The notes beneath the pieces were generated by a model. That model was not told where the DNA came from, searched no databases, and worked only from the letters and a program-made list of their open reading frames with translations. Positions 19,219 through 37,217 of a stretch of 64,000 nucleotides of DNA are shown one piece after another. Each line of letters starts with the position of its first letter. Positions within the stretch are counted from its first letter, which is position 1. This DNA is from Sinohyriopsis cumingii (lineage: Eukaryota; Mollusca; Bivalvia; Unionida; Unionidae): assembly GCA_028554795.2 (NCBI GenBank), contig CM068829.1, positions 129,472,016 through 129,536,015 of the forward strand. The letters run 5' to 3'. A program made the translations under genes and the position numbers.

Positions 19219-19482
19219 AGTAGCAGGAGGGTGAACCAACCACTTGCTGGAAGATCCATTTATGAAAAATAAAGCTTCATACGAAAAAAAAGAACAAATA
19301 CAAGGTCAATAATGCCAAACTGAAGCCTCTAACCAAAACAGAGTTTCTCTAATTGGGTTAGTTTATACTGTTACTTTATCTTTGTCATTGGTGTTTTTCT
19401 AAATTTGTGTGTGTTTTGTTTACCCACCGTGACACTCCCTGCTTCTGTGTGGGTGTGGTGTAATTAAATCATTATTATATCA
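19219..19482 (+). repeat. Left terminal inverted repeat of the viral element
   Basis: It matches the reverse complement of 36186-36475 over nearly its whole length. Shared blocks include CTTGCTGGA, CCATTTATGAAAAATAAAG, AATTGGGTTAGTTTAT and AATTAAATCATTATTATA. It starts AGTAGCAGG, compatible with the AG starts of Polinton termini, and ends four bases before the first viral ATG at 19486. Confidence 0.85.
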
Positions 19483-19485
19483 ATA

Positions 19486-20424
19486 ATGGAATCTCATACA
19501 GCTAAATTAGCTTGAGAGCAATCAGAGGCAATTAAAAAGCATATCCCCGTCCGTGATTCTGTCAAGCAACAACTGCAAGCGCATCATGAGTCTCAGGTGG
19601 AATTTACAGAAGGTGCAGAACAATTATTTAAACCTGTTACAAAGGCTACCAAAGGAATTACAAAGGCTAACAAAGGTCTTCTTCCCACATTGGAACAAAC
19701 CGCTAAAGCAACTGAAAAAATAGCAGAAAGAACTATAATGAAAAAAAATTCTACAAGAACTTCCAGGTAAAAAAGCTGCTCTTCAACCACAATTACAAGA
19801 AGTAATACAAGTACTTGAAACAGTTGATAAAGTTCATGAGGTCAGTGATGCAAGGGATCTTGTTACACCAAAACCAAAACAACCAAAAACACCAGTGCAG
19901 TTTACCAAGGAAGGTTGTAGACAACTTTGAAAAAATGCTGTAGCAGCTGCTGCAACAGGATATCCACATGATAGATTATTAGATCAAAATACAGCCAGTG
20001 TTTCAACAACAAAAAATTGGGTTCCTTTTGTATTTCGAAAGTCTCATGGTATACCTAAAATCACCGCTGAATATAAGCATAAATTTGCAGAATTTGAGAA
20101 ACAAGTCAATGAAGCAAGAAGAGCATCCTTACCTTGAGTTTTGCCATTCAGCCCACCTCATAATGAGGAGGAAGAAGCAACTGGAAGTGTTATTGGTTCA
20201 GGTACCTGGGGGAGTGGTCATATAACTCCATGTCCTGATAATGTCCTTGCCAATGTTAAACGATTAGAAATTCTAATTGGCAGAAAATGAGCTGGTAATA
20301 ATTCCCCACAAATCATTAATGAAGCAGCTGATATTTCTCAATGATTATTTACAGGCGGTACCATGGACATTAATGTTTATCGATCTCTCATTGATGAAAT
20401 CATTGATGAGTATCACAATGTTTG
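19486..20424 (+). pseudogene. Viral protein 1: helical, coiled-coil-like, function unknown
   Basis: The ATG lies just inside the left TIR. The frame, broken by TGA/TAA codons and shifts near 19745 and 20137, gives about 310 residues. The N-terminal half is helical and charged (VEFTEGAEQLFKPVTKATKG). A mid Lys/Pro stretch (TPKPKQPKTP) follows, then a conserved-looking C-terminus (TPCPDNVLANVKRLEILIG, then TGGTMDINVYRSLIDEI). Similar uncharacterised proteins accompany capsid genes in related invertebrate elements (recalled). The position at the head of the capsid block suggests a structural or scaffolding role (inference). Confidence 0.5.
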
Positions 20425-20472
20425 AGGGTATGTAATTAGATCAGTCACAATAAAAATAAATAATAAAAATAA

Positions 20473-20880
20473 AATGATCATTGATAATGCTCAACGTAGA
20501 CCTGTAATGGTCAGTGATAAATGCATGATTACCAACACAGAAGGTTACCTATGGAAATGGACTCGGTGATGTTGTTCAGGGTCTATTCAGAAGGATAGCC
20601 CCAAAATCAATACCCATTCCAAAGCAACTGGGAATGAAAGCTATTGACATTGTTCGTGATAAAGGTATTGGTGCTGCTGGTGATGTTGCTAGTAAAGCAT
20701 TCTCAGCAATCAAGGATAGACTAGCATGATTAATACGACGAAAACCGCAATCAGTAAAATTACCCAGTACAGAAGTTATGCCTTCAAATGTCAGTTAAAT
20801 AATTGATCAAGCTGCAAATAAAAAATTAGTAGAGTTGGCTGGTGTACTCGTCAGAAAAAGGAAAAAATGTAACTGCTAGT
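20473..20880 (+). pseudogene. Small basic capsid-associated protein candidate
   Basis: A frame of about 130 residues, with a shift near 20562 and stops at about 20729 and 20800, contains GLGDVVQGLFRRIAPKSIPI. A Gly/Ala/Lys-rich amphipathic stretch follows (GIGAAGDVASKAFSAIKDRL), then a basic tail. A small basic protein with an N-terminal amphipathic helix next to the major capsid gene is reminiscent of adenovirus-type cement or core proteins, but no homology is proven. It ends a few bases before the capsid gene. Confidence 0.4.
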
Positions 20881-20902
20881 CTGATAGAAGGAAGTGGTCT
20901 TC

Positions 20903-22258
20903 ATGTTAGATGATAACAAATTTAATAAAATGTTTAACCATGTATCTGATCCAGCATTTGATATGGACACAGAAGTTCTCAAAGATGAGTCTGTGTGTGA
21001 TTATCAGTATTATTCTTATGATGCATGTGTACCTAATGCACATGGAAGAATCAATATACTACTTCAAGATACAAGTAGATATTTTTTACCCATAGAACCA
21101 TTTATTGATGGTATACTTTTACGAGCAGATGATACAGCATATGGAATTGGAGATTAAGTTGGTTTTGTTAATAATGGTGTCATGGCGTTATTTAACAGAG
21201 CCATATACATGATTGATGGAAAAAATATTGAATTTTGTCTTGAACATGTTCAAGTTGCCACAACAATACTTGGCCATGCAAGATACAGTGATGATTACTC
21301 GAGATCAGCTGGTCCATCAAGGATGTTTGCAAAGGATACAACTGATCATCCAGAAAGCAGAAATGTAGCACTAAATGCAGCTGCAACTTAAGTTGCATCA
21401 ATGAATGAAAACTTCAACTTGGGATTCACATCATGCTGAATGATGTTGAACAGCGATGAAGTGATCTCATGTGTGATTCCACTACTGCATATATTTGGAT
21501 TCTGTACAAATGTTAGAAAGGTTATATTTGGTGCTAAACACATCATGGTACAGAAAAGCCACCGATAATGATGCAATATGGCGTGATGATGCCATTGGTG
21601 CTGGTAAAGTAATACTAACAAAACTGTCATTGTGGATGCCAGCAATGACTCCACTGATCAACAAAGAACAATGGTTACTTTCTTTTATGAGTCAAGGTGA
21701 TAAAACAATATTATCACGGTTGATGATGACCACAAACAGTATTCAAGGTAATGCTGCTGGTTTATTCACATGGCAGACAGTATCACAGCAGGGGCTGTCC
21801 GCACCATGACATATATTCATCATGTTTCAGGAAAATGCCAGAGTAGATTCGCAGAACAAAATCCACTGGTGTTTGACACACTTGGAGTTTCTGAGGTTTC
21901 TCTGAGGATAAATAGACATCAAGAACCTCCTGAAGAAGTGTTGCTGAATTCTGAGAATAACCATGTTGCACATGTATATCAACAGTTGATGACATTTATG
22001 GGGCGTGATCAGAATGTTGATTCTGGTTTACAAATATCACATCTAGATTTCACAAGATTATATCAGATTTAATTCTTTTCACTGGAACACCTGGATTTAA
22101 TTAGACAATTTGTCATTGATATACACTTCTGGGCTCATGTAGCTTGACTACCCGCTGGTGGTTACAAAGCAATAACTGTTATACTCTGCAATAAAACAAT
22201 GCACTTGAAGGTGTTGGTGGATGAATGAGAGTCATTGATGCCCCAGTAGAAAACATGT
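20903..22258 (+). pseudogene. Major capsid protein, double-jelly-roll type (decayed)
   Basis: The ATG at 20903 (MLDDNKFNKMF) opens a reading path of about 450 residues. It has stops at about 21155, 21390 and 21436 and shifts near 21490-21560 and 22070. Recognisable pieces are GFVNNGVMALFNRAIYMIDG, VATTILGHARYSDDYSRSAG, CVIPLLHIFGF, VILTKLSLWMPAMTP and a C-terminal GGYKAITVILC. The pattern resembles capsid proteins of Polinton-like elements in cnidarians and molluscs (recalled). Such proteins form the icosahedral hexon-like lattice. The central position among structural genes and the downstream protease fit. Assignment to the double-jelly-roll fold is by family resemblance, so a structure prediction on fragments would be the test. 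Confidence 0.65.
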
Positions 22259-22281
22259 AATTAAATCATTCATATTATAAT

Positions 22282-22750
22282 GCCATATCATCATGTTAGT
22301 GTCAATCTGACTCCTGATCAGATTAAAAAATCTTCAATCAAAATCAGCTAAAAACTGTGGAATAAAAATATCACTAAAAAATGATCAGATCACAGGTGGT
22401 CAAAATAAACTATCATTGTCAGAATGTCAACTCAGGCACTTCAATGATGCCAAACAATCAAAAACTGGTGTTAGACTTAAGCTTTCTGCTGGTGCCATTA
22501 AAGACACAATGAAAACGGGTGGTATATTTTCACTTCTTGCAGCTATACCAGCACTAATAGCTGCTGCAGCTCCAGCTGTTGCAAAAACAGCTGCACTTGT
22601 TGCTGTTGGAACTGATGCTGGAATGGCATTAAAGAAAGCAACAGGAAAAGGAATAAAATATTATTTTAAAAAAGGCAAAGGGTCTAAGACTACAAGGAAC
22701 CCAACACTGGTATGGAAAAGGTCTGAGACTTTCAGGAACACTTTGCTGAT
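22282..22750 (+). pseudogene. Hydrophobic/basic minor capsid or core protein (pX-like candidate)
   Basis: It starts MPYHHVSVNLTPDQIKK, shifts frame near 22345, and continues with repeated short motifs of the form GVRLKLSAGAIKDTMKTGG. A strongly hydrophobic Ala/Leu helix follows (GIFSLLAAIPALIAAAAPAV), then a Gly/Lys-rich C-terminus (GKGIKYYFKKGKG). The layout resembles small adenovirus-like pX/pVI minor proteins that bind DNA or perturb membranes; this is an analogy. It lies between the major capsid and protease genes, and its 3' end overlaps the protease start. Confidence 0.5.
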
Positions 22751-22757
22751 TCTTCCT

Positions 22758-23152
22758 ATGTCCCATTTTGATTTACTTGGTACTTCTAAAAAATTAAATA
22801 TAAAAAATTTCAGAGGTGTTTTAATCGTGATCAATTACCAAAACAACCAAACAATATTGAAACTGGTATTATTAATCTCAATAAAAGTTCTGGTCCAGGT
22901 ACTCAATAGGTTGCATATGCAACTGATCCAAGTGGAATTGTTTATTTTGATTGATATGGATTGGCACCACCAAAAGAATTTTTAAAATATGTCGGCAGCA
23001 ATAAAATCACTGTGCAACACACTTCAGTCTGGTATTCAACATTACCAATACAGACAATAACAGATCTGACAATTTGTGGCCATGAAGTAATTGCTGTACT
23101 CGATGTTGTGTCATCATCAACAATACCACCTCATAAAGTCGTGCACGAATAG
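22758..23152 (+). pseudogene. Adenain-like cysteine protease (maturation protease), inactive
   Basis: From ATG at 22758 the protein begins MSHFDLLGTSKKLNIKNFRG, with a frameshift near 22822. It continues to SSGPGTQ, a stop, VAYATDPSG, IVYFD, a stop, YGLAPPKEF, and later TICGHEVI. In the adenain/Ulp1-like fold the catalytic His sits in a G-T-H-W context, the Asp in YFD and the Cys before Gly-His. Here the His codon reads Gln (CAA 22904-22906) and the Trp codon is TAG, while the Cys (23075-23077) survives. Such proteases process capsid precursors. The copy is certainly dead. Confidence 0.65.
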
Positions 23153-23204
23153 ACAAGTAGACAGTATAACTGTCCACCGTCATTTTAAACAGATCTTAAA
23201 TTAT

Positions 23205-24550
23205 AATGGATGATATTTATGGAAGATCTTCTATCAAAGACAAGAAGAAAAAAAGATGATCCTGATTTGTCAAATTACGCTACCAGAGATGATCTTGCTG
23301 ATTTTATGAATCTATTCTGGATTTGAACAGGATGAAGTTGTCATTTTTCAGGATAAATACAGTGTTTTAAAGACAAGTAAAATTAAAAGGGTCAACATAA
23401 TTCGTAGAGTTCTCAGTGCTACCAGGGATAATATTTAAGTAATTACTGACGGTGGTAGAATCAGAGATTCAAATATATCAATCACAACTATCAGAAATGA
23501 AATTATAAAAGTGTTGCTAATCGTTTACGATCCACTGGTGATACAATGACAGGTGAACTCAACATTGGTGGCAATTCTATTACAGCGTTAAGAGGACCAA
23601 CATCCTATGAAGATGCCATAACCAAAAAATATAGACAAATAACTATACTAGAGTAGATACCAAATTAACCATGCTATGGTCTGAGTATGATGCTCACATA
23701 AACATGTTTTGAAATCTTCATAGAAATTTTAAAGACTCAATAAAACCGCATGATTTCTTTGGAAGTCAATTGTTTGTTGACATAAAACTCTGAAATTAAC
23801 AAAAATCTAGGTGATATTGAAACAACTGTCAGACACTGAAATGATTAATAAACAATTAGGTATTATCAGAGATCCTCAATCATTTTCAGAGTTATCACAA
23901 TAGCAGAGAGTAATATCGATATTTGAAAAAAAACTACATGTTATCTATATACCTATCCAACCTCACCCTGGTGTACACACCAGCAAGATACTTACGCTCC
24001 TCTTCTGACAATCATATACTCATTATTCCCACTATGAAAACAAAGACATATGGACCGTTCTTTTGCATACCAGAGCCCAGCAATGTGGAATGAATTGCCC
24101 AATGAACTTAGACACAAAGACACAGTGATCACATTAAAGAGTGCTCTCAAAACTCACTTATTTCGACCGGAAGAACAAACTTAAAGACCTAATAATGTTT
24201 CCTACCTTAAATATTCTCAAAATGTTGTTTTATTTTCTAATTTCATGGTGTTTGTTTTTGTAATCATTATATGTTTTTTTTCATCTTATATTTGTTGTCT
24301 AATGTTGTAAAGCGCTTAGAGCTTCTAAAGATTAGGTGCTATACAAAGTCCTAATCATTATTATTATTATTATCAGCGGAATTCCTGATATTGTTAAAAG
24401 ATTTAATCCAATTAAAATTCTTCACAAGCAGATCGTCAACATGGTATACACAGTGTCATCAGGATCATCAACATGGTCACAGCATGATAACACAATCAAA
24501 CATAACGTGGAACAGATAATTTTTCCGGAACCATGTCTATTGTGTTAAAT
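23205..24550 (+). pseudogene. Fibre-like attachment protein, interrupted by a LINE fragment
   Basis: The ATG at 23205 (MDDIYGRSSIKDKK) is followed by a frameshifted path containing NYATRDDLADFM. At about 23545-23640 it contains GDTMTGELNIGGNSIT and PTSYEDAITKKY. The form G-D-T-M-T-G-x-L-x-(M/I)-G-G...P...DA..K-Y is the repeat typical of phage tail-fibre/collar proteins and viral fibres. The frame decays beyond 23.7 kb and is split at about 23950-24375 by a LINE 3' end, and short coding-like pieces resume at 24376. A role in receptor attachment is inferred. Precise limits are uncertain. Confidence 0.5.
23950..24375 (+). mobile_element. LINE (CR1/L2-like) 3'-end insertion
   Basis: This 5'-truncated element encodes the usual ORF2 C-terminus: YLRSSSDN, then AMWNELPNELRHKDTV and LKTHLF. 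An AT-rich 3' UTR follows, with GTAAAGCGCTTAGAGC and GGTGCTATACAAAGTC, ending in a (TTA)n tail at about 24356-24374. It interrupts the viral fibre-like gene and so post-dates the virus. Confidence 0.75.
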
Positions 24551-24599
24551 AAAGGGGATGAAGAAACATTTATGTGGAACCATCTGATAAAATATTAAC

Positions 24600-25066
24600 C
24601 GCAGCATCTTACTGGTGGTGTCTGGAAATGTTGTTAAAAAACATTTTTGATACAATTAATCATGTCAGTGGCAAACTAAAAAATATCGTTGACAAGTATG
24701 CAGTAAAAGTAAAAATATATCACACACATGTAGTTGTTGTTAACATAATTGTGTATTTGGCATCTGCTGTTATCACTAGAAACAATGTATTGTTATCAAC
24801 AATAACATCACCAGCAATTATAACAATTTGTATTTTAGTTGCAACAACAATTCCTGGTGTTCTTCATACCATCACACAAAAATAACTACATGTACAAATA
24901 CAAAATTGCATGAGTATATAATAAAATTACACGCATCGACGCTAGCATACTCCAAATTATCTTCGTTGATATCATCAAGCCTCAGTGATGGAAAAATATC
25001 AGATACTGAGTTCACGGAGTTTATTAAAATTCACAGAGGTAATGACTGTGACAGAATCTATGCCTG
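24600..25066 (+). pseudogene. Viral membrane-associated protein candidate
   Basis: A mostly open path reads VSGKLKNIVDKYAVKVKIY. Two hydrophobic segments follow (VVVVNIIVYLASAVI and ITICILVATTIPGVL). After a shift near 24880 comes a charged helical C-terminus (LASS-like spacing; SSSLSDGKISDTEFTEFIK). Proteins with this order (helical region, hydrophobic hairpin, SDGKIS-D-EF tail) recur in related invertebrate elements (recalled). Function is unknown; an internal membrane or minor capsid role is possible. Confidence 0.45.
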
Positions 25067-25097
25067 AGTTAAATAATAATAATAAAGTAAATGCTGA

Positions 25098-25855
25098 ATG
25101 AATTACTACAACAGTTTTTCATTAATACAATTCCATCAATAACAACAATGATATCAGCAAGCTCAACCAATCCTGAGTTTAGCATCAATTTTCCAACTGA
25201 GATTCCAGAAAAGAAATAGCACTAGCATAGCTAAGAGTACATCACAGCTGGCCAAATAATAGATCAAAAACATTTGGTGGACTACCAGCAAATAATTTGT
25301 TGGTATTCTCGAATAAAAATAAACAAGATGGTACTTCCTATTGGCACTTTGTTGGCATTTCCACATGCAGTTATCAACTTGAACAAATCAACAATGAATT
25401 TCAGCGTAGCATTAAATCAAAGACTGGAAGAGAATCCAAAATAGCTATTGGGGCCCCGAGTGGCCGAGTGGTCTAAAGCGCTCTTCGTTACGGATCACTG
25501 CCATCTCACCTCTGTCTGCGGCGGTTCGAGTCTAAGATTCAGCCAATGTGGGCATGTGAGAAAGCTTGCCAGTAGCTTCTCGTGGGTCGGTGGTTCTTTC
25601 CGGGGTTTTCCGGGTTCTTCCTCCACCATTAATACTGGCCGCCATGTATAGCCTATCGTGCTGAAAAATGGCGTTAAACCCCACAACAACAACAACAACC
25701 AAAATAGCTATTACTGTTCATAAGCCAACATTATCAGCTGCAATAGAAATAAACTCATTAGATTACGCTGTAGATATATATTCTTCAACAATCCAAAATG
25801 TATTAGGATGACCAGAAATTCCGGCATTTTATCAGGGACCACCTGAACCAAAATA
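25098..25855 (+). pseudogene. Penton-like/minor capsid candidate split by a SINE
   Basis: It starts MLNELLQQFFINTIPS and is broken by stops near 25226-25240. The main block contains NLLVFSNKN, SYWHFVGISTCSYQLEQINN and FQRSIKSKTGRESKIAI. After the SINE (25450-25698) the frame resumes with ITVHKPTLSAAIEINSLDY and ends GPPEPK. The alternating hydrophobic pattern fits a beta-rich single jelly-roll, and the position in the capsid block fits a penton-type protein. Both are inference. The stop abuts the next ATG (25856). Confidence 0.4.
25450..25698 (+). mobile_element. SINE family A, full-length, 14-bp target duplication
   Basis: It starts GGGGCCCCGAGTGGCCGAG, has a Leu/Ser-type tRNA-like head, B box GGTTCGAGTC, the conserved central region, and a CAA-repeat tail. 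CCAAAATAGCTATT flanks it exactly (25436-25449 and 25699-25712). It interrupts the penton-like viral frame, which continues across it, so the insertion is later than the virus. Confidence 0.92.
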
Positions 25856-26630
25856 ATGATTTCTCCACAGAAAAGAAAATATTTATAATAACTCCTGAAT
25901 ATAAAAAAAAAAATCCATGGGTGAATGATATGAATGATTATATTGCGCTTGATGGTATAAAACTTCCTAAGATAGATTTAGGTTTATATACTCTTGATTA
26001 TTTGGGTAGAGATTAGATTGTCAATGAAGAAGAGATTTAAAAATATTCCGACCAGATCAAATCAGATCATAAAGAATCAATTAACAAACTGCGAGATATA
26101 TTTTCTAGTATTACACTTTTTAACAACAATGATCCATGCTGGCACATTATTGAGCCAATACAACATCTGAACCAGCTTGTATCACAACTCGATTATTTTA
26201 ATAAAATTATCGTTAAAGGTGTTGCCCACCATAATCGAGTTTTTACCTGAAAAAATATCAAATAAACAAATATTCCTCAGGCACTGTAAAATAACTGAGG
26301 CAGATCTATTAAAATTTTTAATACCAAAATTTAACAGTGAAGAACTAACAAAATCAGTTAATAATCTTATCGATGAATATTTTCCCAAAATACTTGAAGC
26401 ATGGAGAAAAATAACCCCTCTTCCAAGTATTCTCAAGTATAATACTGATCCATACAGTGGCGGTCATCATATTTCACCAGGAATTGTAAATATAACATAT
26501 ACAATTGCAATCAATCCTGCATGTGATGCAATGATGGCAGTTATCAAGTTGATCTTGAAAAATCTAGGTAGGCTCAACAAGGATATATTTTACATACATT
26601 TATGCCTTAAGTACCTCCTGGATATTTGAC
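25856..26630 (+). pseudogene. Viral protein of unknown function
   Basis: The ATG at 25856 follows directly on the stop of the preceding gene. The reading path, with stops and shifts, gives about 250 residues: NPWVNDMNDYIALDGIKLP, IDLGLYTLDYLGRD, SDHKESINKLRDIFSS, then 26177-26600 with FNSEELTKSVNNLIDEYFP and AWRKITPLPSILKYNTD. Its C-terminus includes SGGHHISPGIVNITYTIA. I do not recognise a family. It is the last gene of the plus-strand structural block. Confidence 0.45.
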
Positions 26631-26907
26631 CGTACAAGAACCCATTAATCCAGTTCATCTGTGATGTCATAATCGCTATTATCAAGGAAACATTTCAAAC
26701 TTACTGACCAAGCCTGACACTTTCTTGATTTGAGATATGAAGTTTTGAATATAAATCTGTATGTAAGATTATAGATCATCATGTTCATGATTGATTTTCA
26801 ATCCAGATTCATAATCGGGGGAAATAAAATATAATATAACAGAATTTATTTTTTACTGATTCTTCTCCAGGTCTCAGGTTAATGATAATCAAAATAATGA
26901 AAATTAG

Positions 26908-27520
26908 ATTTTATAATTTGATGGGTGAATGGTACTTGAAATTGTGAAAATTCTACTGAAAACAGAAAATTACATAATAAATATTATAATGTGAATCCGA
27001 ATATATCTGAATCTGAATAAATATTATTATCAGAATAAATATTATCTGAATAAATATTATCTTATTCTACAATGATTCTCAAATTTGATGGGTTATATGG
27101 TACTATAAATTGTTAAAATCAGATTTTATAATTTGATGGGGTAAATGGTACTTAAAGCAATAATTATAGGACTGATTTTATAATTTGATGGGGAATATGG
27201 TACTCGGAGTTATGAAAATCATTCAGATTTTATAATTTGATGGGGTATATGATACTCAAAAAAATGTTAAAATCCTACTGAAAATAATAGTTATAGGACT
27301 GATTTCATAATTAGTTCAGGCAAATATACTGAAAATTATAATTATAGGACTGAATCAGAATAAATATTATTATCAGAAATAAATCTGAATCAGAATAAAT
27401 ATTATAATCTGAATAAAAAGAATTCTGAATCAGAATAAATATTACAATCTGAATAAAAATAAATCTGAATCAGAATAAATATTAGAATCTGAATACAAAT
27501 AAATCCGAATCAGATTAAAT
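26908..27520. repeat. Two interleaved short-repeat arrays inside the viral element
   Basis: Unit (a) has the core AATTTGATGGGG plus ATGGTACT. It starts at 26915, 27082, 27130, 27182 and 27234, so the last four copies are spaced 48-52 bp. Unit (b) is GAATCAGAATAAATATTA, repeated about five times between 27355 and 27520 with shorter forms at 27000-27060. The arrays occupy the point where the plus-strand structural genes and the minus-strand genes converge. No open frame crosses them. Confidence 0.8.
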
Positions 27521-27521
27521 G

Positions 27522-29350
27522 TTATATTATATTAACACTTTTACAATCACTATTAACTTTGTCATTGTTTTCATTTTCACAATCCATTACACCAAAGTTA
27601 AAACACTCGCTGCCATAACTTTCACTTTCAAAATCACAATAATCACTGTAACTTCTTTCATTTTCACGATCATTTTCACGATCAGACATAATCTTTCTCA
27701 ACTGCCTCATATGTGTTAATAATCTTTTCTTGTTTTGTATTTGTGAGCTAATTCTCATCTCATTTTTTCAATAGTGCATAAGAGAGAAACAAATTTTTCA
27801 ACTTCTGTATCTTTCACTATCGCCAAGGATTGGAACACAGATTGTTGAATCAGCTTAATGAACCCATATTCCACTGGTAGTGTATATCTATCTTCAAATT
27901 TTCGACTTTGCAATGATTCAAAATCACAAATAATTTTTTCAGGATTCAGTTCATCAAATTTTTTTATATAGTCCTACCCATTTATATCGACATCCTCGGG
28001 CACGAGAAAATATTGTCGACATAGGCGGATGTCGAGATAAGTGTTCGGGTGGTTCTGAAAAAAAAGATAAAAGTTAAATTCATCATTAAGCGGTGACCTG
28101 TCATCAGTGAGTAGCATTTACACTTTGAGAAAACAAACAATGGAAATTTTGAGTACATGAAGACAAAACCTGTGTGAAATACACTTGTGTATTGACAAAT
28201 TACATTTTGGTTACCTTTGTGTAATAAAGTCCACAATAAAATACTGCATTGGTCACATCCTGATATGAAAAACATTTACTATGATATTCTATGTCGGCAT
28301 TAGCACATGGTTGCATAGTTGTTATTTACATGCTTCAAGTACATGTACTTAAATTGGCCTAGATTTTGGTAAGTCTGTTCTCATCTTATTGAGCCTACCA
28401 AGGGAATACGGCTATTCACAGGGAAATGAAAACCTCTCAACAAGTCGGTTTAAGCAGTACATGTATTTAATTACAGAAGTCATTGTGAAAAGTACATAAA
28501 AGTGAACATGAGATATGCAGCTGATATGATTTATGAAGGCATAATATTGTATACACTGACACATGCTAATGAGGTATTAAAAGAAAATGATTCTTACAAT
28601 ACAATATTGTAACAATGTCTGCTCAAGTAGCATATATTTAAAATATGTCCTGGAGATAACAAATTATGAATTCTCTCAAAATACAAATCCATGTAAGCAG
28701 TAAAAGATTTTAATGACAAATACATTTCCATGTAATTGAGATTATTATCTATAGCATAATCAATGCATCAAACTACAATAATATTTAATTTAATTTAAAT
28801 TTAAATTAATTAAAATTAAATGTTGTTAGCACAACAAGTGAGCATGGGAGATAACAAGAGTACATGCATTTCTGAACTTCATGCAAGCTTCTTCTGTTTG
28901 AGCCTTGATAGTTGTTCCCTCTGGAGAAGACGCTGCAACTTTTCCAAGTGACCACGTGCTTCTTCCACTTACCGACATAAATGATTAGGCAGGAAAATTA
29001 AAGCCTGGTGGCAAGAACAACTAATTGTTGAACAAAGTATGGGTCGGAACCGAGAGCTTGTCAACATAAATTATTAGAAAACAAACGATTTGTTCAAGCA
29101 GGGATCAAGGGCTTCTGTCGACATGTACGTTTATTTTTATCTCGATGTCAACATAAGCATGACAATTTTGGTAGTAATAGCAGACCAAGGGACCAGGACT
29201 TTGCTTTTTGGACAAAATAGGCAGCTTGTCAACATAAGAGATGTCGATATAAGTTGATAGGACTGTACCATCATGTTTTAATTTTTTGATTGCAGAAATC
29301 AGAGCATTAATATTTTCATAGTCAATTATATAAATTGTATTCCTCAACCA
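27522..29350 (-). pseudogene. Viral minus-strand gene of unknown function, split by a pogo-like MITE
   Basis: On the minus strand the 5' part (about 29266-29350) reads IYIIDYENINALISAIKKLK. It resumes exactly across the inserted element at 27968 with KKFDELNPEKIICDFES and YTLPVEYGFIKLIQQS. A frameshift near 27750 leads to a charged Asp/Glu/Ser/Asn-rich C-terminus (27522-27758, MSDRENDRENERSY). The family is not recognised. Orientation opposite to the capsid block suggests an early or regulatory class (inference). Confidence 0.5.
27969..29265 (+). mobile_element. Nonautonomous pogo/Tigger-like element (about 1.3 kb)
   Basis: The left end reads TAGTCCTACCCATTTATATC; the right end in reverse reads CAGTCCTATCAACTTATATC. 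GTCGACAT-type motifs recur just inside each end. TA dinucleotides at 27967-27968 and 29266-29267 give the target duplication expected of Tc1/mariner/pogo elements. No transposase frame is present. Removing it restores the reading of the interrupted viral gene, confirming the borders. Confidence 0.85.
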
Positions 29351-29488
29351 AGATGATATACAATTGTGTAGTATAGTGCAAACACAACCCCTAGATTACT
29401 AAATGTTTTAATTACCTGTTCACTCCCACAAATACACTTCCAGACTGACTGGAAGAAAAATTCTGGTGCCTTTTATAATCATGGTAAC

Positions 29489-29582
29489 GCCTATGCAGAA
29501 TGTTCCAGAATAACTGAGTTCCAGAATAAATGAGTTCCAGAATACCTCAATCACATGATTTTCTAGGACATTCTGCATAGGC
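29489..29582. repeat. Foldback hairpin with 17-bp arms
   Basis: GCCTATGCAGAATGTTCC (29489-29506) pairs with GGACATTCTGCATAGGC (29566-29582). The roughly 60-base loop contains repeats of AGTTCCAGAATA. It lies between the minus-strand viral genes. It could be a tiny foldback element, a terminator-like structure or a viral cis signal; the sequence does not decide. Confidence 0.6.
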
Positions 29583-29856
29583 ATTAATTAATCATATAAA
29601 TATTACACAGTAACAAGTGGGTAATTACTCTACTGGAGAGATCTTTGCTTGACACAGTTATCTCCGTTCACAAAATGAAATGTTATTTTTTGACATTTTT
29701 TTGAAAATACCAATCTGATTATATTATTTGCGACATATTGTACCAAATGCAGGTCAATATCAAAATATTTGCCAGCTGAATTTATTGAGGAAAAATATTA
29801 TTTCTTTGCCAATACCTACATTCAGAGATTTAACAACTTTTGCAATTTTTGAGTGC

Positions 29857-30118
29857 TTACCAGTACCACCATGTGCAGAATTCTGACTGTGTAATAAACT
29901 GTAAATTAATCAAATAATTATTTAGGGGATTTAAATCAATATGATCAATAAGAAGACCATCTTCAATTACCCTGTGAAAATACTCGTACATTAACCTATG
30001 AGAGTAATACTTTTTCTTTCCATCAACACCAAACATTAGATAACCATTATTAGTGACAAAGCCAACTGTTTTTTTAGTCAACAATTCCTGATGACACCAT
30101 CTCGAGATGCCTCATAAT
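29857..30118 (-). pseudogene. HNH endonuclease-like protein
   Basis: The minus-strand frame reads KKTVGFVTNNGYLMFGVDGK, then YYSHRLMYEYFH and LLIDHIDLNPLNNYLINLQF. The order N-G-Y, H-R-L, then I-D-H-I-D-x-N-P-x-N-N...NL matches the compact HNH nuclease fold found in homing-type endonucleases and many large DNA viruses. The length (about 75-85 residues) is typical of the bare domain. The N-terminus is disturbed by a frameshift near 30080. A role in DNA cleavage or self-propagation is inferred. Confidence 0.65.
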
Positions 30119-30247
30119 TTTTTTAAATGGGATATTTTACAAACCCATTTTTATCCATTTTGTATAATAATATTTGTCTAAATAATTATTTTGAAAATCT
30201 GGCAAGAGTCATCATTGTTTCTTATGACCATGTCATTATTGTCAGTG

Positions 30248-30405
30248 TTATCTTTTTTCATCATAATATTTTTTCAGCTCTCTGTACTTTTTACCACCAC
30301 ATTGCACACACAACTGCATTTCCCCACTAACCCCAACACCACACTTCAAACACGGTTCTGGTACTAAACTCCCTCTTTGAACACTTTGTAAGTGAAGTCC
30401 ACAGA
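30248..30405 (-). CDS. Small zinc-ribbon protein fragment
   Basis: The minus-strand frame reads SLVPEPCLKCGVGVSGEMQL, then CVQCGGKKYRELKKYYDEKR and a stop. Two Cys-x2-Cys pairs separated by ten residues form a zinc-ribbon pattern. The frame is open for about 50 residues with an in-frame stop just upstream, so it may be an exon-like remnant of a longer protein. It lies just before the divergent start of the polymerase gene. Confidence 0.45.
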
Positions 30406-30482
30406 ATTAGCCTACACAGGCTTTGTTATATGGAGCAGTAGAATCTATCATTAACCAACTACAGTTATTCTTTGTTTGAATC

Positions 30483-30560
<78 letters not shown>
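30483..30560. repeat. (TA)n microsatellite at the divergent point of viral genes
   Basis: About 78 bp of uninterrupted TA/AT dinucleotide separates the minus-strand zinc-ribbon frame from the plus-strand polymerase gene. It may have expanded from an AT-rich promoter region; that is inference. Confidence 0.9.
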
Positions 30561-30561
<1 letters not shown>

Positions 30562-30589
30562 CAATTTAAATATCTTTTTGTCTTTATTA

Positions 30590-33500
30590 TAATCTGGAAG
30601 AGTTTGAGAGATTATCTGCAACTGAACCTTCTAAATCTAGATTCGATCTTGAGAGAAGAACCCCTGACTTGCGGAGGCAAGCTCTGGCTGATCCGATGGA
30701 AACTCTGATTAAAAGTATTTGTGATGCCAAGAAAGAATTTCGCAACAATGGTGCATGTCATGTGTGGTCGATGTTCAGAATCATGCACAACACCAAAAGT
30801 GTTATCGATGCTACAATGAATGATGATAGAGCAGCAACAATTATTAATTATCTCAATAATCAAAGATATTTTTTTTTAAAGTTCATTGTAGAGTTAGTTG
30901 ACACTTGGATTATCTGTGATAAACATGAGCATGTCCATCTTCATAATGGAAATATTGTTACATTAAATACAAATTCCAAACCAGGAATGTTCACTGGTAT
31001 TGACAAACCATATTATAAAAGAGCGTATCCTGTGACCGCAGTTCTTTATGCAATATATCTGCTGAATGATAAACACAGTGTTCATGTATCTCAAACCAAC
31101 AAAATTTTCAAAAATAAATTGTGTAGCCAAACGAGTAATAGAACATTTTACAAACACGATATGTGGAAATAAACTAACAGATCTACAACATGAAAAAATA
31201 AACAAATGGGCTGAATCAGTCAAGGATAAAGGAGCTTTTATAAATGATTTTGCTGAATTAGGAAAGAAATTAAAATTTCAAATAATAGTAAAAACAATCA
31301 CAGGAGAAATTTTGTATCAATATAAATCAAAATATAAATCAAAAGGAGCTTTGATTGAAATTGTTGATCATAATGCACATGCATGGACATCTGCAGTAAC
31401 AATATTTCCATGAGATCAAACTGTTAAATTTTATAACAATGAAATGGATATGTTTGATGTTATAGGAGATACCACTAAAAACGATCCTGTCTCTGTATGG
31501 TTGTTTCAAAGCACCGAAAAGGGACCTTATGATCAATTTGTACAACCTAATGGAGATATTTATCGTATAGAATATATCCACATAAATATGAAAAAACATG
31601 TGCAGAGATATACCAATGATGATACTGAACAATTAATGACTACTTGTTTACAGTTCCATCAGTTACTGCTCATTTTGCTCAGAAGAAAAATTCGTGGAGA
31701 CCAACATGATCAGAATTTCTTGAAGATATCCAACTCAGCTGTGTCGAATATGGACATGGTGGAGTAAGGAATACTAAATACAATTTTAATAAGGGTAATA
31801 TTATTGCAGTTGATATAGCTGCGTGTTATCCCAAAGTTTTCTTGGAATTGGAGAATGTTCTAAATATTTTGACAGATTTGGACATCCAACAAACAATATA
31901 ACAAGAGTTGCGATAAATGGACCATTACCAAAGTTTGATTTAACTGGATTCGCTCATATCGAGTCATTTAATTTTGCTGAAAATCTTCATCCAGTTTGTT
32001 ATGCCTGGTTTGGTAAACATTTTTCAGAAAAAAATGTGGGCACCAATAGTTTTATTATGATATATTATTATGATATATGCTTGATGTAAAAGTATTATTA
32101 GTGGTGGTTGTGAATGAAGCAATTATATCATATAGTCCGCAGCAACAAGTATGGTTACCACCGCAAAAGAAATATTCTGATGATGAACAACCTGATAAAA
32201 CTGATTTTGAGAATAAAGAAACAAATGAAATTGGCAGAAGAATAATTGGTAAATTTACCCAAGGAGGATCATATCATCATAAACGACACTGTGAAAAATT
32301 AGAGATGATATGAGTTAGATTTCATAATTGCCGATACAGCAGAAAAAATATATTTATAGATCGAGAAACCGTTTTCTTGCAAGATAGAACTAAATTAGGT
32401 ACAATTGTGAGTTATACTGATGGTGAGTCACCACAGTTCACTCATTTAAGATCTTCAATACTAGCATATGTTTCAATAAATTTGTTATCAATGGTAAACA
32501 GATTTCATAATATCGCATTTACAGTCACCACAGATTCATTTCATATCAGTATAAAACATGCAAAAATTGTTAGAACTATTCAATATAGGCCGTTATGCAT
32601 CATGGGGTGAATAGAGAATAAAACAAGAAAAGATACATGATTATTCTCCATCTGCAGACGTTGAAATAAAATATATCTATCACAAAAATAGTCAAATATA
32701 TCAAAATCATCATCTGCATCATCTGTATATGATCCTGTGGCTAGACATAAAACAGTTTTAAATTAATGGACCGAGAGGTTCTGGTAAAACAACACGTGTG
32801 ATCGAATTATTTCATGGACTTGTGTTAACCCCTACACATAGACTTGCCAGAGAAACGAACAAACAAGGAGTTAAATCTCATACTTATCACAGCTTCTTTC
32901 GATGGAATGGAGAAACATAGACTCCTGATTGAATGGGTGAGAAACATACTCCAAAGATTATTATCAGGGATGAAATATGTACAGTTCGCTGGAGACATTA
33001 AAAATATTTCTTGATTGGTTATTAAATGATACTGCTTTAAAAATGTGCAGTGATCATAGTCAACCGCCACCTTTTGTTGGATTGTCTCCATATAAATGAC
33101 TAAAACAGTTTGTAGATTATTATGAAGAAATAAGTGATAATCATAGAGCACTTGATCCAGAATTAAGAGAGTTTAAGAAATTAATCAGACCACAAGCAAA
33201 TAAAATTCAGTGTGAAATAATGCATGAGATAATTTCAGAAACACATAAACAATTTTTGGAATTTATGGAGAGCACATGATTTCATAGTTGCAAGTAGAAA
33301 AATAGTTCGTGATAAACTTCAACAACAATTATTAATGTTACAAAAAGAAAAATGTTCAAATCTACCTGTACCATTGTGTTATCGACCAGCAGATACGCGA
33401 CGACAAAATATTGAAGATGATATACCAGGATCATCAGAGAAACAAAATCTTGTGTGAAATGATAGTTTTAGTTCCTGTCGGTGTTGTTGAGAGCATGTTA

Positions 33501-33904
33501 ATGATGGACAAAACTCCGTGGACTCTAGGATATGCTAGAATGATTCAATCCTCACAAGGATTAATTATTTCTGATACTAATATTTGTATTGTTGATGATT
33601 GTATCAAATGGTCAAATTTAGTTTATCTTGCAGTGTCTCGAATCAGAAGAATGCAGAGGGTTATCATAGACTTCAAGAAAATAATAATCAAACTGCAACT
33701 GACAATAGCAATGATGTTACTGATAATGATGTAGTAAGAAAAAAATTGGTTAGATATCATCAGTGTGACCAAACAAATAAACATGACTTTAATCTCGATG
33801 TTGAATTTATCATGATGCCGAAACAACAGCAAAATAATCATTGTGTGAGATGTAACACAGTAATGGTGTGGCAGTATTCAAATAATAATCCAAGACAATT
33901 GTAG
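30590..33904 (+). pseudogene. Family B DNA polymerase fused to SF1 helicase (decayed)
   Basis: A chain of frames spans about 3.3 kb. The N-terminal region (EEFERLSATEPSKSRF to about 31.4 kb) is unassigned, and no exonuclease motif is readable. Polymerase motif A is VDIAACYPK (Asp codon 31812-31814), followed by NITRVAINGPLPK, IIGKFTQGG near 32250, and a motif-C-like VTTDSFHI (Asp 32533-32535). After about 75 residues comes a Walker A, GPRGSGKTT (32768-32794), with LTPTHRLARE. Near 33.52-33.66 kb helicase motifs V/VI follow (MIQSSQGLII, IVDD, LAVSR), and the C-terminus has a CVRCNTV zinc-like piece. It has several frameshifts and TGA/TAG codons, some at Trp/Arg-like positions. It would replicate the viral genome. 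Fusion rests on the lack of a start or gap between the parts. Confidence 0.7.
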
Positions 33905-33929
33905 ACAGAATTAATAGTAGTCTTGGTCA

Positions 33930-34970
33930 CACACGAAAATGTGATGCTGACCTGTCTTGAATGTAATCGACATCAAGGCAATAGTTCACAAAAGTGAATG
34001 TGGTGGTAATTGTGTGTCTTCAGGAATTACTTGTAATTGTTCATGTATAAATCCACGTTGAGGAGCAGTTGAATCTAACCTGTAGATTGCGGGTCTACCT
34101 GTGGATCTTACCACGCTGGAAATGTTATGTGTCGTAATACTACAAATAGGATCAGTCGCTCTTTTTTTACCACCTTCAAGTTAGCCAGGTTCATATAAAT
34201 ATCTTACAGCCACATTATCTAGCACTGGTTGTGTTGAAAAGTCATGTTGTTGTATTGGTATATGTTTTTTGTGATCACATTGATGGGTTTCATAAAAATT
34301 GCACAAGTAATTTAATTATTTAATGCAGTTATCACACTTGGTAGTCTTGCAACCCATTCATGAGATTTCGTCTTTCTGAATTATTTTCTTCACATATTGA
34401 TACCCAAATAACCGATCAATAAGTGTTCAATTAAATTGTTCAACAATTGCCTGATCGTGATGAATTGTAGTATATCCTCATCTAATTATGACATTAAGTT
34501 GTTTCATCAGAGATGATACTGTACCAAGAAATTCCTTGCCAGGATCAACCTATAGCAACTGTGGCCATCACGAGGGTCCTCGATGATAAACTTGTTCAAA
34601 AGCAGATACAATTTCAGCTGCTGTTTAAGTTGATATTGATTCTGCTTCTTTATATCTATTTGCAACATCAATGACAGTCAAGGCATATTTACGTATGTAC
34701 GTGATTAATGTCTACCAATTTTAATAGTATTATGTGGTAAAAACAAAATATCTGCTTGATGAACTTCATTGGGAGTGATGACATCGAAATGTGCATACTG
34801 AATTTGTTTAGGAGGTGGTAGATAAATCTGCAATATTGCCTGTCATGCTAACCAATTCGCAGCAACAAAACTGGTGACATTTGCTGCATCAGCAAAGTTA
34901 CTAATTGCTGCTCTACCCCTCCAATATCCTCTTGGGCTATAATAAATCAATTCCATTATTTTAATAATTG
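33930..34970 (-). pseudogene. rve-type (retroviral-like) integrase of Polinton kind
   Basis: The minus-strand path, with many stops and shifts, starts near MELIYYSPRGYWRGRAA. The catalytic core shows HQADILFL (first Asp, 34750-34752), ALTVIDVANRYKEAE, VDPGKEFLG (second Asp, 34544-34546) and AIVEQFN (Glu, 34439-34441). The spacing from the second Asp to the Glu is about 35 residues: the DD35E triad of integrases. A C-terminal region with EWVARLPS-like spacing and a tail ending near 33.93 kb follows. It would insert the element and generate 5-6-bp duplications, matching the 6-bp candidate here. It converges on the polymerase-helicase gene. Confidence 0.7.
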
Positions 34971-35129
34971 GTGGGTTAATTAGCAGCACCTAATACTAGT
35001 TTACCTTTCATTTCAGACCTTACTAGGAAGCTAGCAAGTTTTTCTCTGAGAGATTTATTTTTGATGGAATATAACAAGTGAATCAACTTCACATCTGCAA
35101 TATGTCATTGTAAATCCTTATTTTTATTT

Positions 35130-35415
35130 ATTTATTTTTATAATCTACATCATGAACATGACATGCTTGATCAATCACATTTACTGGATACTCTCCAGGA
35201 CTTGATTGATCTTGCTCATCAAGACGGATATCAAGTCGAGTTCCAGGACCACAATAATTATATCCAGGAAGATGTTTTTATCCTGGGTATTTAGCCCATG
35301 GAACTCCTGGTAATTTTCCCAATGAAGCAGTGTTATCACCACCAGACACTTTGTGTCCAGAGATAAATTTATATTTTTTGTACCACATTTTACACATTTA
35401 CCTGTAAGTGCATGC
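35130..35415 (-). pseudogene. Zinc-ribbon plus viral phospholipase A2-like protein
   Basis: On the minus strand ALTGKCVKCGTKNINL (zinc-ribbon half, DUF5679-like) leads, after a shift, to LPGYNYCGPGTRLDIRL and VIDQACHVHDVDY. Y-x-C-G-P-G is the calcium-binding loop of secreted-type and parvovirus-type phospholipase A2, and D-x2-C-x2-H-D-x2-Y is the catalytic helix with its His-Asp pair. In parvoviruses this enzyme breaches the endosomal membrane during entry; a similar role here is inference. The gene runs opposite to, and just ahead of, the ATPase gene. At least one TAA interrupts it. Confidence 0.7.
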
Positions 35416-35515
35416 TTTTTATTTTTTGTTATTATTGTTGTTAATCCACTTGTGGGGGTGGATGCTCTATATCAAACACAATGTAAATCCATATTATTTA
35501 TCATATTTGTACAAC

Positions 35516-36182
35516 ATGTATGTAATTGATTTCTCAGCGACACGAAAGCAAGAGCCAGTAAAACATCATCCAGCACTACCAAATTTTATCAGAGCAATTA
35601 TCATAGGTCCATCTGGGTCTGGTAAGACACAATTATTACTTAATCTTTAAATGAGATGGCTCAAAAGGGATAAGTTATATTTAGTGACACCATCTGTAGA
35701 TGATCAATGATGCTACAATGTGCTTAAAGTTTTCATGAAATTGCAAAATTGTTGGACAAGGACGCCAATGATATTATTGATTTTATCAATGATATTGATG
35801 AAGCCCCATCTGTAGATGACCTCGATGGATTTCTTAATAATCTTGTAGTATATGATGAAGTTATGCTGGACAAACAATCAAATCCAGCTCAGATATTTTC
35901 CAGAGGCAGACATAAAAACACAAATGTGAGTTATGTTACTCAGCGATATACACAAATACCTAAAGTGATCAGAGATAATTGTAATATTTTAGTTGTGTTT
36001 AATGAGTTGATATACACACTCTACAAAATATTCACCAGACTTGGTGTTCAGGAGATATGGACATGATTAGATTTAGAAATTTCTTTTCAAAAGCACAATC
36101 TATTCCACATGGATTTATCACGATAAATTTAAATGAACCTCAGTCACGATATTATATAGGTCTTGATAAAATCTTTGGTTGA
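35516..36182 (+). pseudogene. Genome-packaging ATPase (A32/FtsK-like)
   Basis: The ATG at 35516 gives MYVIDFSATRKQEPVKHHPA, then Walker A GPSGSGKT (35606-35629). A stop at about 35650 and a shift near 35740 follow. The second frame (35749 on) has Walker B LVVYDEVM (Asp-Glu 35854-35859), then FSRGRHKNTNVSYVTQRYTQ (sensor-type Gln) and RDNCNILVVF. After another shift near 36035 it ends NLNEPQSRYYIGLDKIF. About 220 residues is normal for A32-type ATPases, which pump DNA into DJR capsids. The stop lies four bases before the right TIR. Confidence 0.8.
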
Positions 36183-36185
36183 GAG

Positions 36186-36475
36186 ACTGATATAATAATG
36201 ATTTAATTACACCACACCCACAGAGCAGCAGGGACGGTGTGACCACAAATGAGTAAACAAAACACACACAAATTTAGAAAAACACAAACACACACAAATT
36301 TAGAAAAACACGAACAACAAAGATAAAGTAATGAAATAAACTAACCCAATTAAAAAAACTCAGTTTTGGTTAGAGGCTTTCGTTTGGTGTTATTGACCTT
36401 ATAGTTTTCTTTTTTTTTTGTATGAAGCTTTATTTTTCATAAATGGACCTCCAGCAAGTTCACCCGCCCTGCTGC
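36186..36475 (-). repeat. Right terminal inverted repeat of the viral element
   Basis: The inverted partner of 19219-19482. It is longer by about 25 bp because of a local direct duplication of ACACAAATTTAGAAAAACAC near 36265-36310. The sharp inner edge (36186) coincides with the end of ATPase coding. Confidence 0.85.
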
Positions 36476-36823: not shown

Positions 36824-37010
36824 GGTAAATTTTTAAATATAAATAAATTTCTTAAGTTTGTAACTTTTTTTGCTTTTAAAGTATAGCACAAATTTTGTAG
36901 TGTATATACTGTTATTGGTTTATCTTTTTGGAAACAAACAGTACAAATCTTCCCTTTATTTGACAATAAAGAAAAACAAGCTTAATACATACAGGGTGAG
37001 CCATCTGCAC

Positions 37011-37217
37011 CTGGGCTGTAAACTAACACATTTTTCAGTCGCCATGTTGTCTGCAGATCCACATACCACCAGGGATTACTAGTTCCTGCAGTAGAAGTTT
37101 GAGAGCAGCTCAGCTGGTTTGCTGCACCTTCAACATCCCCATCAACAGCGTTGAAAGCACGACCCAAATCCTGTTCCGATGACTGATAAACTGATCTTCC
37201 AAAGGCCACATTTCTCC
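37011..37217 (-). CDS. Host gene exon: first half of F5/8C (fucolectin-type) domain
   Basis: This 207-bp exon runs on the minus strand from acceptor TACCAG to donor CAG/GTGCAG. It encodes RNVAFGRSVYQSSEQDLG, AFNAVDGDVEG, SCSQTSTAG and NPWWYVDLQTTWRLKNVLVY. N-V-A-x-G-x-x-x-Q-S-S, A-V-D-G and W-W-x-V-D-L are hallmark positions of fucolectin/F5/8C lectins. Its phase-1 ends join the exons at 46089-46310 (giving Gly) and 11426-11632 (giving Asp). The domain pairs with 11426-11632. Confidence 0.75.

What the first reader, a model, noticed from the sequence alone, without database searches (positions are those of the whole stretch)
19219..36475. A near-complete fossil Polinton/adintovirus-like genome in a host intron
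Seen: long inverted repeats enclosing integrase, PolB, SF1 helicase, A32-type ATPase, adenain-like protease and a jelly-roll-type capsid, plus minor capsid, fibre and PLA2 genes. Known: integrase, protein-primed PolB, ATPase, protease and DJR capsid define Polintons/Mavericks and adintoviruses. Inference: this is an integrated virus of an uncharacterised lineage, with a gene set that differs by the polymerase-helicase fusion, PLA2, HNH and phage-like fibre.
Basis: partly seen in the sequence, partly recalled or inferred. Interest (0 to 1): 0.88.

Follow-up and report, generated by a model that had tools for sequence, protein, structure and literature searches.

The report
Fossil Polinton-like virus in host intron
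A 17-kilobase stretch of this animal genome is the decayed remains of an integrated DNA virus, and the same genome still carries many younger copies of its relatives with unbroken genes, so the virus family can be described from complete parts instead of guesswork.

Summary
Inverted repeats at 19219-19482 and 36188-36476 enclose broken genes for a double-jelly-roll capsid, adenain-type protease, fibre, polymerase-helicase fusion, rve integrase, PLA2, A32 ATPase and HNH nuclease. From the window pieces alone only PLA2 and HNH were seen to pass Pfam cut-offs. The host assembly (G000, 2.9 Gb) holds copies with unbroken genes; their proteins cover the fossil nearly end to end in the same order: capsid 456 of 458 residues, polymerase-helicase 955 of 976, integrase 316 of 316, ATPase 223 of 224. 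The polymerase is not a canonical Polinton/adintovirus one: no PF03175 match, motif C lacks the first Asp, and it runs into a Pif1-type SF1 helicase, the plan described for Tlr1-type polinton-like viruses. The family thus joins a Tlr1-type replicase to Polinton-type integrase, protease, ATPase and capsid plus PLA2, in an animal. This copy is old (repeat arms K2P 0.126; sister copies 81-86% identical over 345 nt). A related subfamily is young: 47 of 47 scored polymerase-helicase frames are unbroken, two of six sampled repeat pairs show no mismatch, and all six have 6-7 bp target duplications. New variant of a known kind; no clade tree was possible.

The parts
19219..19482 (+). left terminal inverted repeat
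   Evidence: outer end agrees within one base with L040
36188..36476 (-). right terminal inverted repeat
19516..19767 (+). first gene of the element, fragment
   Evidence: tblastn to L012 48%, 3.5e-18; function not known
20210..20407 (+). fragment of the 265-aa ORF upstream of the capsid
   Evidence: 65 of 265 aa, 1.4e-18; function not known
20514..20840 (+). small core/minor-capsid-like protein (165-aa ORF in L010)
   Evidence: 108 of 165 aa; no Pfam match; role inferred
20888..22257 (+). [quoted passage not shown]
   Evidence: 456 of 458 aa, 4 HSPs in 3 frames, 7 stops, window 20930-22257; relative has PF21738 1.2e-24
22280..22676 (+). pX-like small hydrophobic/basic protein
   Evidence: 30 relatives E<=0.01 of 1132 candidates, best 1.3e-40; name by eye
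22790..23170 (+). adenain/Ulp1-type cysteine protease, broken
   Evidence: relative has GTHW, FDSYG, Q..CG and an ASFV S273R match at 3.4e-4; catalytic His position is substituted here
23310..23653 (+). fibre-like gene, fragment
   Evidence: PHROGs virion structural 0.0018 and tail fibre 0.014; 62-73% over 15-40 aa to L002; no match to the 473-aa ORF of L010
24676..25173 (+). membrane-type small protein (by eye), weakly conserved
   Evidence: 157 of 176 aa at 27%, 7.9e-14
25106..26768 (+). 516-aa ORF of unknown function, broken
   Evidence: 346 of 516 aa; no protease residues in the relative, no Pfam or PDB match
25446..25699 (+). repeat (SINE, by eye) nested in the element
   Evidence: 87-96% to three other places in the window
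27725..27973 (-). conserved small ORF (124 aa in L010)
   Evidence: 86 of 124 aa, 9e-17
29875..30134 (-). HNH endonuclease
   Evidence: HNH_3 1.3e-8, PHROGs 3e-17, relatives HNH_3 2e-15 with NUMOD4 below cut-off
30254..30463 (-). zinc-ribbon-like protein
   Evidence: DZR 0.0016 (below cut-off); 70 of 115 aa to L013
30690..33659 (+). fused PolB palm - SF1 (Pif1-type) helicase with vOTU-like N-terminal part, broken
   Evidence: 955 of 976 aa, 9 HSPs in 3 frames, 13 stops; one open frame in relatives
33989..34956 (-). rve (retrovirus-type) integrase, broken
   Evidence: 316 of 316 aa, 17 stops; relative PF00665 2e-8, D69 D132 E167
34979..35313 (-). parvovirus-type PLA2
   Evidence: PF08398 2e-10 in window, 4.8e-13 in L013; 108 of 111 aa
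35483..36176 (+). A32/FtsK-type packaging ATPase, broken
   Evidence: 223 of 224 aa, 3 stops
36982..37245 (-). host exon, F5/8-type C, flanking
   Evidence: PF22633 3.8e-7

Best explanation
The stretch 19219-36476 is an old germline insertion of a linear double-stranded DNA virus of the Polinton supergroup. Shown: terminal inverted repeats, the gene set and order, unbroken relatives in the same genome, 6-7 bp target duplications around six sampled relatives, decay of this copy and of the sampled copies of its own subfamily. Inferred: an rve integrase joined the repeat ends to host DNA; replication was protein-primed by the fused PolB palm, helped by its own Pif1-type helicase in place of an exonuclease domain; a vOTU-like part cut the priming protein free; A32 ATPase packaged DNA into double-jelly-roll capsids matured by the adenain-type protease; the fibre bound cells and PLA2 opened the endosome. 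The replicase is of the Tlr1 type, the rest of the gene set is of the Polinton type. The HNH gene is probably a passenger homing nuclease.
For: The same genes in the same order in other copies, and repeats with coincident ends. 47 of 47 scored genomic copies of the fusion are open over all 976 residues at 97-100% identity (35,172 first-look candidates, only the best 47 scored). 126 of 126 scored capsid matches pass the cut-off, 122 of 126 without internal stops (15,190 candidates, only the best scored). Motif C reads VATDSF in 10 of 10 fetched copies and VTTDSF in the window, the missing-first-Asp sign given for Tlr1-type proteins (PMC11071308 passages). The C-terminus matches 10 PDB sequences at E<=0.1, best 0.0078: six are named Pif1, three (5ftb, 5fhd, 5ftf) I recall as Pif1 but are named otherwise, one is named AAA ATPase. 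Repeat arms differ by K2P 0-0.033 in six sampled copies and 0.126 here.
Against: No clean target duplication flanks this copy (TTTCAGT against CCAGTGA). The vOTU and palm are called on motifs only; no Pfam OTU or PolB match at E<=0.1, and both AlphaFold models were too poor to use. Absence of an exonuclease is inferred from the domain spacing. No penton gene was identified. The helicase matches in PDB are weak and short. No virion, expression or mobility evidence. High identity and lack of stops among the listed copies are partly a ranking effect; in one sampled copy (L011) the fusion is split into 173- and 750-aa frames.
Confidence: 0.82

Rival explanations
1. A canonical Polinton/Maverick or adintovirus whose polymerase has merely decayed beyond recognition.
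For: Integrase, protease, ATPase and DJR capsid are all Polinton-type; an OTU-like part before the palm also occurs in adintovirus PolB (PMC11071296 Results).
Against: The unbroken relatives, not only the fossil, lack a PF03175 match and carry an SF1 helicase in the same open frame; no chromodomain in two integrases at E<=0.1.
Confidence: 0.12
2. A lineage that now spreads only as a self-synthesising transposon inside the germline, its capsid genes being relics.
For: Many copies in one genome, young insertions with fresh target duplications, head-to-tail copies.
Against: Capsid frames are unbroken in 122 of 126 scored matches (ranked by score, so biased); the fibre gene differs between subfamilies; 29 of 30 outside relatives of the small protein sit on short contigs of 510-5,783 bp whose origin is not stated, which free virus or host DNA in samples could both explain.
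Confidence: 0.3
3. A chance patchwork of unrelated element fragments between two unrelated repeats.
For: Nested repeat and microsatellite inside; most window pieces give no family match alone.
Against: Ordered, nearly full-length coverage by proteins of relatives from the same genome and coincident ends.
Confidence: 0.01

Closest known systems
Tlr1 element and Tlr1-type polinton-like viruses (pPolB-S1H), including transpoviron helicases
   Same: PolB palm with no room for an exonuclease, fused to a C-terminal Pif1-type SF1 helicase, first Asp of motif C missing, vOTU-like Cys and His before the palm; rve integrase as in Tlr1 (PMC11071308, PMC4642659, PMC4028283 passages)
   Different: Has an adenain-type protease, stated to be absent in Tlr (PMC4028283 passage), and a PLA2, and lives in an animal genome; HNH is a separate gene here, not a C-terminal domain
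Polinton/Maverick
   Same: rve integrase, A32-type ATPase, adenain-type protease, DJR capsid, terminal inverted repeats; PLA2 reported in some (PMC4642659 passage)
   Different: No PF03175 polymerase match; helicase fused to the polymerase; target duplication 7 bp in five of six sampled relatives (the 6-bp rule is recalled)
Adintovirus (Alpha/Beta)
   Same: Animal host, integrase, DJR capsid, OTU-like part of the polymerase
   Different: No chromodomain match in the integrase, no PF03175 match; capsid comparison by BLASTP to adintovirus hexon could not be run
OmPLV of Oxyrrhis marina (helicase-polymerase fusion)
   Same: SF1 helicase fused to a protein-primed PolB
   Different: There the helicase is N-terminal, the exonuclease is kept and no rve integrase was detected (PMC12721341 passages); here the helicase is C-terminal

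Membership tests
Polinton supergroup virus | rve integrase | tested here: met
   PF00665 2e-8 over cut-off in two unbroken relatives, 316 of 316 aa aligned to window 33989-34956; window pieces alone gave no match
Polinton supergroup virus | A32/FtsK packaging ATPase | tested here: met
   Pox_A32 1.2e-11 in relative, 9e-4 in window piece, below cut-off
Polinton supergroup virus | double-jelly-roll capsid | tested here: met
   PF21738 1.2e-24 in relative, 456 of 458 aa aligned
Polinton supergroup virus | adenain-type protease | tested here: met
   H-W, D, Q..C order and ASFV S273R 3.4e-4; Pfam Peptidase_C5 only 0.026-0.049, below cut-off
Polinton supergroup virus | penton (single jelly roll) | tested here: inconclusive
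   no penton-type Pfam match at E<=0.1 in the 20 ORFs scanned
Polinton/Maverick proper | canonical protein-primed PolB (PF03175) | tested here: not met
   no match at E<=0.1 in the 976-residue ORF
Polinton/Maverick proper | 6-bp target duplication | tested here: inconclusive
   relatives 7 bp in five and 6 bp in one of six; none clean at the window copy
Adintovirus | chromodomain at integrase C-terminus | tested here: not met
   only rve matched in two integrases at E<=0.1
Adintovirus | hexon and PolB recognisable by BLASTP to adintovirus references | not testable with these tools
   no reference sequences at hand
Tlr1-type pPolB-S1H | PolB palm and C-terminal SF1 helicase in one open frame | tested here: met
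   helicase by Pfam and PDB; palm by motifs A, B, C only; 47 of 47 scored copies open
Tlr1-type pPolB-S1H | motif C without the first Asp | tested here: met
   ATDS in 10 of 10 copies, TTDS in window
Tlr1-type pPolB-S1H | exonuclease domain absent | tested here: inconclusive
   inferred from spacing (vOTU-like part ends at aa 244, motif A Asp at aa 380); not modelled
Tlr1-type pPolB-S1H | vOTU before the palm | tested here: inconclusive
   Cys and His motifs kept in 10 of 10 copies and window; no Pfam OTU match; fold model poor
Tlr1-type pPolB-S1H | placement in a palm/helicase tree | not testable with these tools
   no reference sequences could be fetched; IMG/VR scan found none

The most novel reading that the evidence does not exclude
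An animal-infecting virus lineage that joins a Tlr1-type polymerase-helicase, described in what I read from polinton-like viruses and transpovirons, to a full Polinton set plus PLA2, that has invaded one bivalve-like genome in repeated bursts and is still, or was until very recently, active, while its fibre gene is swapped between subfamilies.
Probability: 0.45. Interest if true: 0.8.

Novelty: new variant of a known kind. Interest (0 to 1): 0.62.

Why it matters
In the passages I read, pPolB-S1H replicases are described from polinton-like viruses and transpovirons, and in one network analysis animal capsid proteins, Cnidaria apart, fall in the Maverick-Polinton cluster (PMC10120064 passages). 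A Tlr1-type replicase with a Polinton-type body in an animal would bridge the two groups and bear on the order in which the exonuclease was lost and the helicase gained. One genome holding both an old burst and a young burst also lets the rate of decay, fibre exchange and host control be measured, and shows that such genes can be missed when only broken copies are scanned.

Tried and rejected
L001 is a chance hit: the match lies in a 931-aa ORF that I read as a phage PolA-like gene. The piece 25231-25473, which I first took for the protease, is not one: the relative has no catalytic residues there; the protease is at 22790-23170. I first suspected a MULE transposase at 27758-27973; it is a conserved ORF of the element. 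I first held the integrase absent, because no piece matched rve; the relatives showed it. at first seemed to fix the element's ends, but its target was trimmed to those ends; one search repeated it on the whole window. AlphaFold models of one polymerase piece and of P0033 had mean pLDDT 57.7 and 35.7 and were not used; no fold search was run. Six IMG/VR scans gave no true relative; tblastn of one polymerase piece against phage records gave none. PDB sequence searches with P0033, one helicase piece and the 516-aa ORF gave none. The protein search with polymerase piece 30570-31169 gave 0 of 51 candidates. A first version of the motif script had a faulty Walker A pattern and was replaced. The genome-wide PF03175 contrast could not be run: the machine was busy each time.
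Full report
What was claimed.

Ends. The repeat arms pair over 165 nt without gaps at 87% and over 253 aligned columns with 29 mismatches, K2P 0.126. The outer ends read AGTAGCAGG on the left and AGCAGCAGG on the right. A related copy, L040, compared with the whole window, begins to match at 19218 and, inverted, at 36476. The flanks show no clean target duplication. On the left the element abuts a stretch like the C-terminal part of a LINE reading frame (26 aa, 58%, 7e-7).

What the window alone shows. I scanned 286 of the 291 stop-to-stop pieces of 30 aa or more against Pfam (the five left out are translations of a TA microsatellite). PLA2 (2e-10) and HNH_3 (1.3e-8) pass the curated cut-off. 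Pox_A32 (9e-4), DUF5679 (9.7e-4) and DZR (0.0016) are below theirs. Among pieces not picked by eye the best were 0.0037 of 102 and 0.013 of 97 (cut-offs not printed there). No integrase, capsid, protease or PolB match appeared. PHROGs gave HNH 3e-17, weak virion/fibre matches (0.0018, 0.014) and a terminase-type match for the ATPase piece (3.8e-5). A motif chain for polymerase and helicase, chosen after seeing the sequence, is present once and in 0 of 1000 shuffles. So the window alone supports part of the list; the rest needed relatives.

Relatives outside. The small protein piece 22311-22982 has 30 relatives with E<=0.01 among 1132 candidates, best 1.3e-40, 52-83% identical over 18-72% of the query; 29 sit on contigs of 510-5,783 bp whose origin is not stated, and one (P0026) on a 190-Mb contig of the freshwater mussel Sinanodonta woodiana. 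The capsid piece 21477-21806 has three relatives among seven candidates, two with the DJR-like domain over its cut-off. With the F5/8-type host exon this suggests, but does not prove, a freshwater-mussel host.

Relatives in the same genome. The window lies in an assembly of 2.9 Gb. A search with PF21738 gave 126 scored matches of 15,190 first-look candidates, 126 of 126 over the cut-off, 122 of 126 without internal stops, and none in 14 control genomes. A search with the polymerase-helicase frame gave 47 scored of 35,172 candidates, 47 of 47 over all 976 residues, none with stops, 97-100% identical. Candidates are not copies, and only the best are scored, so these are lower bounds biased to good copies.

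Gene order. tblastn of the window pieces against sampled stretches of other copies (L010-L013) reproduces the order: small structural genes, capsid, pX, protease, further ORFs, then (other strand) small ORF, HNH and zinc ribbon, then the polymerase-helicase, then (other strand) integrase and PLA2, then ATPase. The left part was read from one copy (C1) and the right part from two others (C15, C3); in those two the capsid match and the fusion lie about 6 kb apart on the same strand. L012 is a rearranged stretch. In reverse, the relatives' proteins cover the window as follows: capsid 456 of 458 residues (51% identity, 7 stops), polymerase-helicase 955 of 976 (51%, nine segments, 13 stops), integrase 316 of 316 (45%, 17 stops), PLA2 108 of 111 (62%, 3 stops), ATPase 223 of 224 (64%, 3 stops), the 112-residue C-terminal part of the protease 110 of 112 (57%, 3 stops). 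Less complete: pX 130 of 173, 516-residue ORF 346, small membrane-type protein 157 of 176 at 27%, 165-residue ORF 108, 124-residue ORF 86, HNH 91 of 190, zinc ribbon 70 of 115, 265-residue ORF 65. The 473-residue fibre-type ORF of L010 finds nothing in the window; the window's fibre pieces match another copy, L002, at 62-73% over short stretches. I read this as fibre exchange between subfamilies.

Identity of the genes. Capsid: PF21738 1.2e-24. Integrase: PF00665 1.8e-8 and 2.2e-8, cut-off passed, with D69, D132, E167 in both copies. ATPase: Pox_A32 1.2e-11. Protease: GTHW, FDSYG, then Q and C, ASFV S273R at 3.4e-4 and adenain at 0.61 among PDB sequences; ribosomal L16 entries also appear at 0.27-0.93, and Pfam Peptidase_C5 only at 0.026-0.049. 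In the window the catalytic His position is substituted. Its reading frame lacks an ATG for the first 65 of 177 codons in L010. PLA2: PF08398 in the window and in L013; YCGPG and HDxxY are kept in the window and in two copies. HNH_3 in two relatives, with NUMOD4 below cut-off.

The replicase. In the unbroken relatives one open frame of 976-993 residues joins a polymerase palm (motif A SVDMSACYP; motif C VATDSF, VTTDSF in the window) to a helicase matched by AAA_19 and AAA_30 over their cut-offs (5.5e-9, 2.2e-8) and, in its last 55 residues, weakly by ten PDB sequences, six of them named Pif1 (best 0.0078). In the sampled copy L011 the frame is split in two. Before the palm lies a stretch with INCVA and VDHNSHAW, which I read as the Cys and His of a vOTU. 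PF03175 and Pfam OTU do not match at E<=0.1. Yutin and co-authors describe Tlr1-type proteins as TP-vOTU-palm-S1H without exonuclease and with the first Asp of motif C replaced (PMC11071308, passages). The plan here agrees in domain order and in motif C. It differs from OmPLV, where the helicase is N-terminal (PMC12721341, passages).

Age and activity. The window copy has K2P 0.126 between its arms. A 345-nt piece of it finds 39 other places at 81-86% (40 scored of 4783 candidates including itself), and the five fetched are all decayed (longest open frame 139-202 aa in about 3.3 kb); three of them on C17 share the same breakpoints. That fits an old burst. Six sampled copies of the related subfamily have arms differing by K2P 0, 0, 0.0045, 0.028, 0.028 and 0.033 (gaps not counted), and all six are flanked by target duplications of 7 bp (five) or 6 bp (one); for a seventh copy no repeat pair was found. 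That fits a recent burst. Capsid proteins of seven fetched copies are 86-100% identical to each other. No absolute date is given, because no substitution rate was tested.

How it most likely worked. See Best explanation; the enzymes and their order are shown, the life cycle is inferred from the known roles of these families.

Literature. I saw passages of PMC11071308, PMC12721341, PMC4642659, PMC10120064, PMC3671162, PMC4028283 and PMC10294476, and the outline, Results parts 1-2 and passages of PMC11071296. The Adintovirus paper (PMC8502044) and Krupovic 2016 (PMC5499653) are not held. Searches listed, by title and start of abstract, no paper on a Tlr1-type polymerase-helicase in a mollusc genome; several listings were capped at 10-20 of more papers, and subscription papers and Repbase are not covered. 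Mavericks in general are reported in all mollusc genomes analysed there (PMC10294476 passage).

On going through the calls again I withdrew as evidence for the ends and replaced it, and qualified the Pfam cut-off statement, the Pif1 names, NUMOD4, the second host exon and the origin of the outside contigs.

Noticed in passing
L012 4699-5073 (G000:C14): The last gene of one copy and the first gene of another lie about 370 bp apart on the same strand, i.e. head-to-tail copies, followed by an inverted HNH/zinc-ribbon block; possibly a concatemer or tandem insertion.
   Followed up: no
L008 and L009 (G000:C15): Two capsid genes on the same strand 19.15 kb apart, each in an unbroken frame, 100% identical at protein level.
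   Followed up: no
L013 846-1571 minus: A second, different A32-type ATPase ORF (Pox_A32 1.4e-7) about 1.7 kb beyond the ATPase gene of that copy, probably another element lineage next door.
   Followed up: no
window 34979-35313 and L011, L013: The PLA2 frame runs up to the start of the integrase frame in another reading frame; a fused product by frameshift or splicing is possible.
   Followed up: no
window 35184-35471 minus: A CVKCG-type stretch with a DUF5679 match below cut-off (9.7e-4) beside the PLA2 gene.
   Followed up: partly
L010 3385-3580: The first 65 codons of the protease frame have no ATG and overlap the end of the pX gene; a frameshifted pX-protease product is possible.
   Followed up: no
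L040 480-984 onward: A copy in which the left end joins directly to the polymerase region (window 19705 to 30553): an internal-deletion derivative.
   Followed up: no
window 39354-44576 minus: A nearly unbroken LINE: 969-aa ORF with endonuclease and reverse transcriptase, 648-aa ORF with a GDSL-lipase domain.
   Followed up: partly
window 26959-27524: Cluster of 40-50 bp direct repeats inside the element.
   Followed up: no
window 477-2144 plus: Three long ORF fragments, the first holding MPRKCVN; no Pfam match for the two scanned; looks like a mobile-element gene (by eye).
   Followed up: no
window 12804-12876 minus: tRNA match in Rfam, probably the head of a SINE.
   Followed up: no
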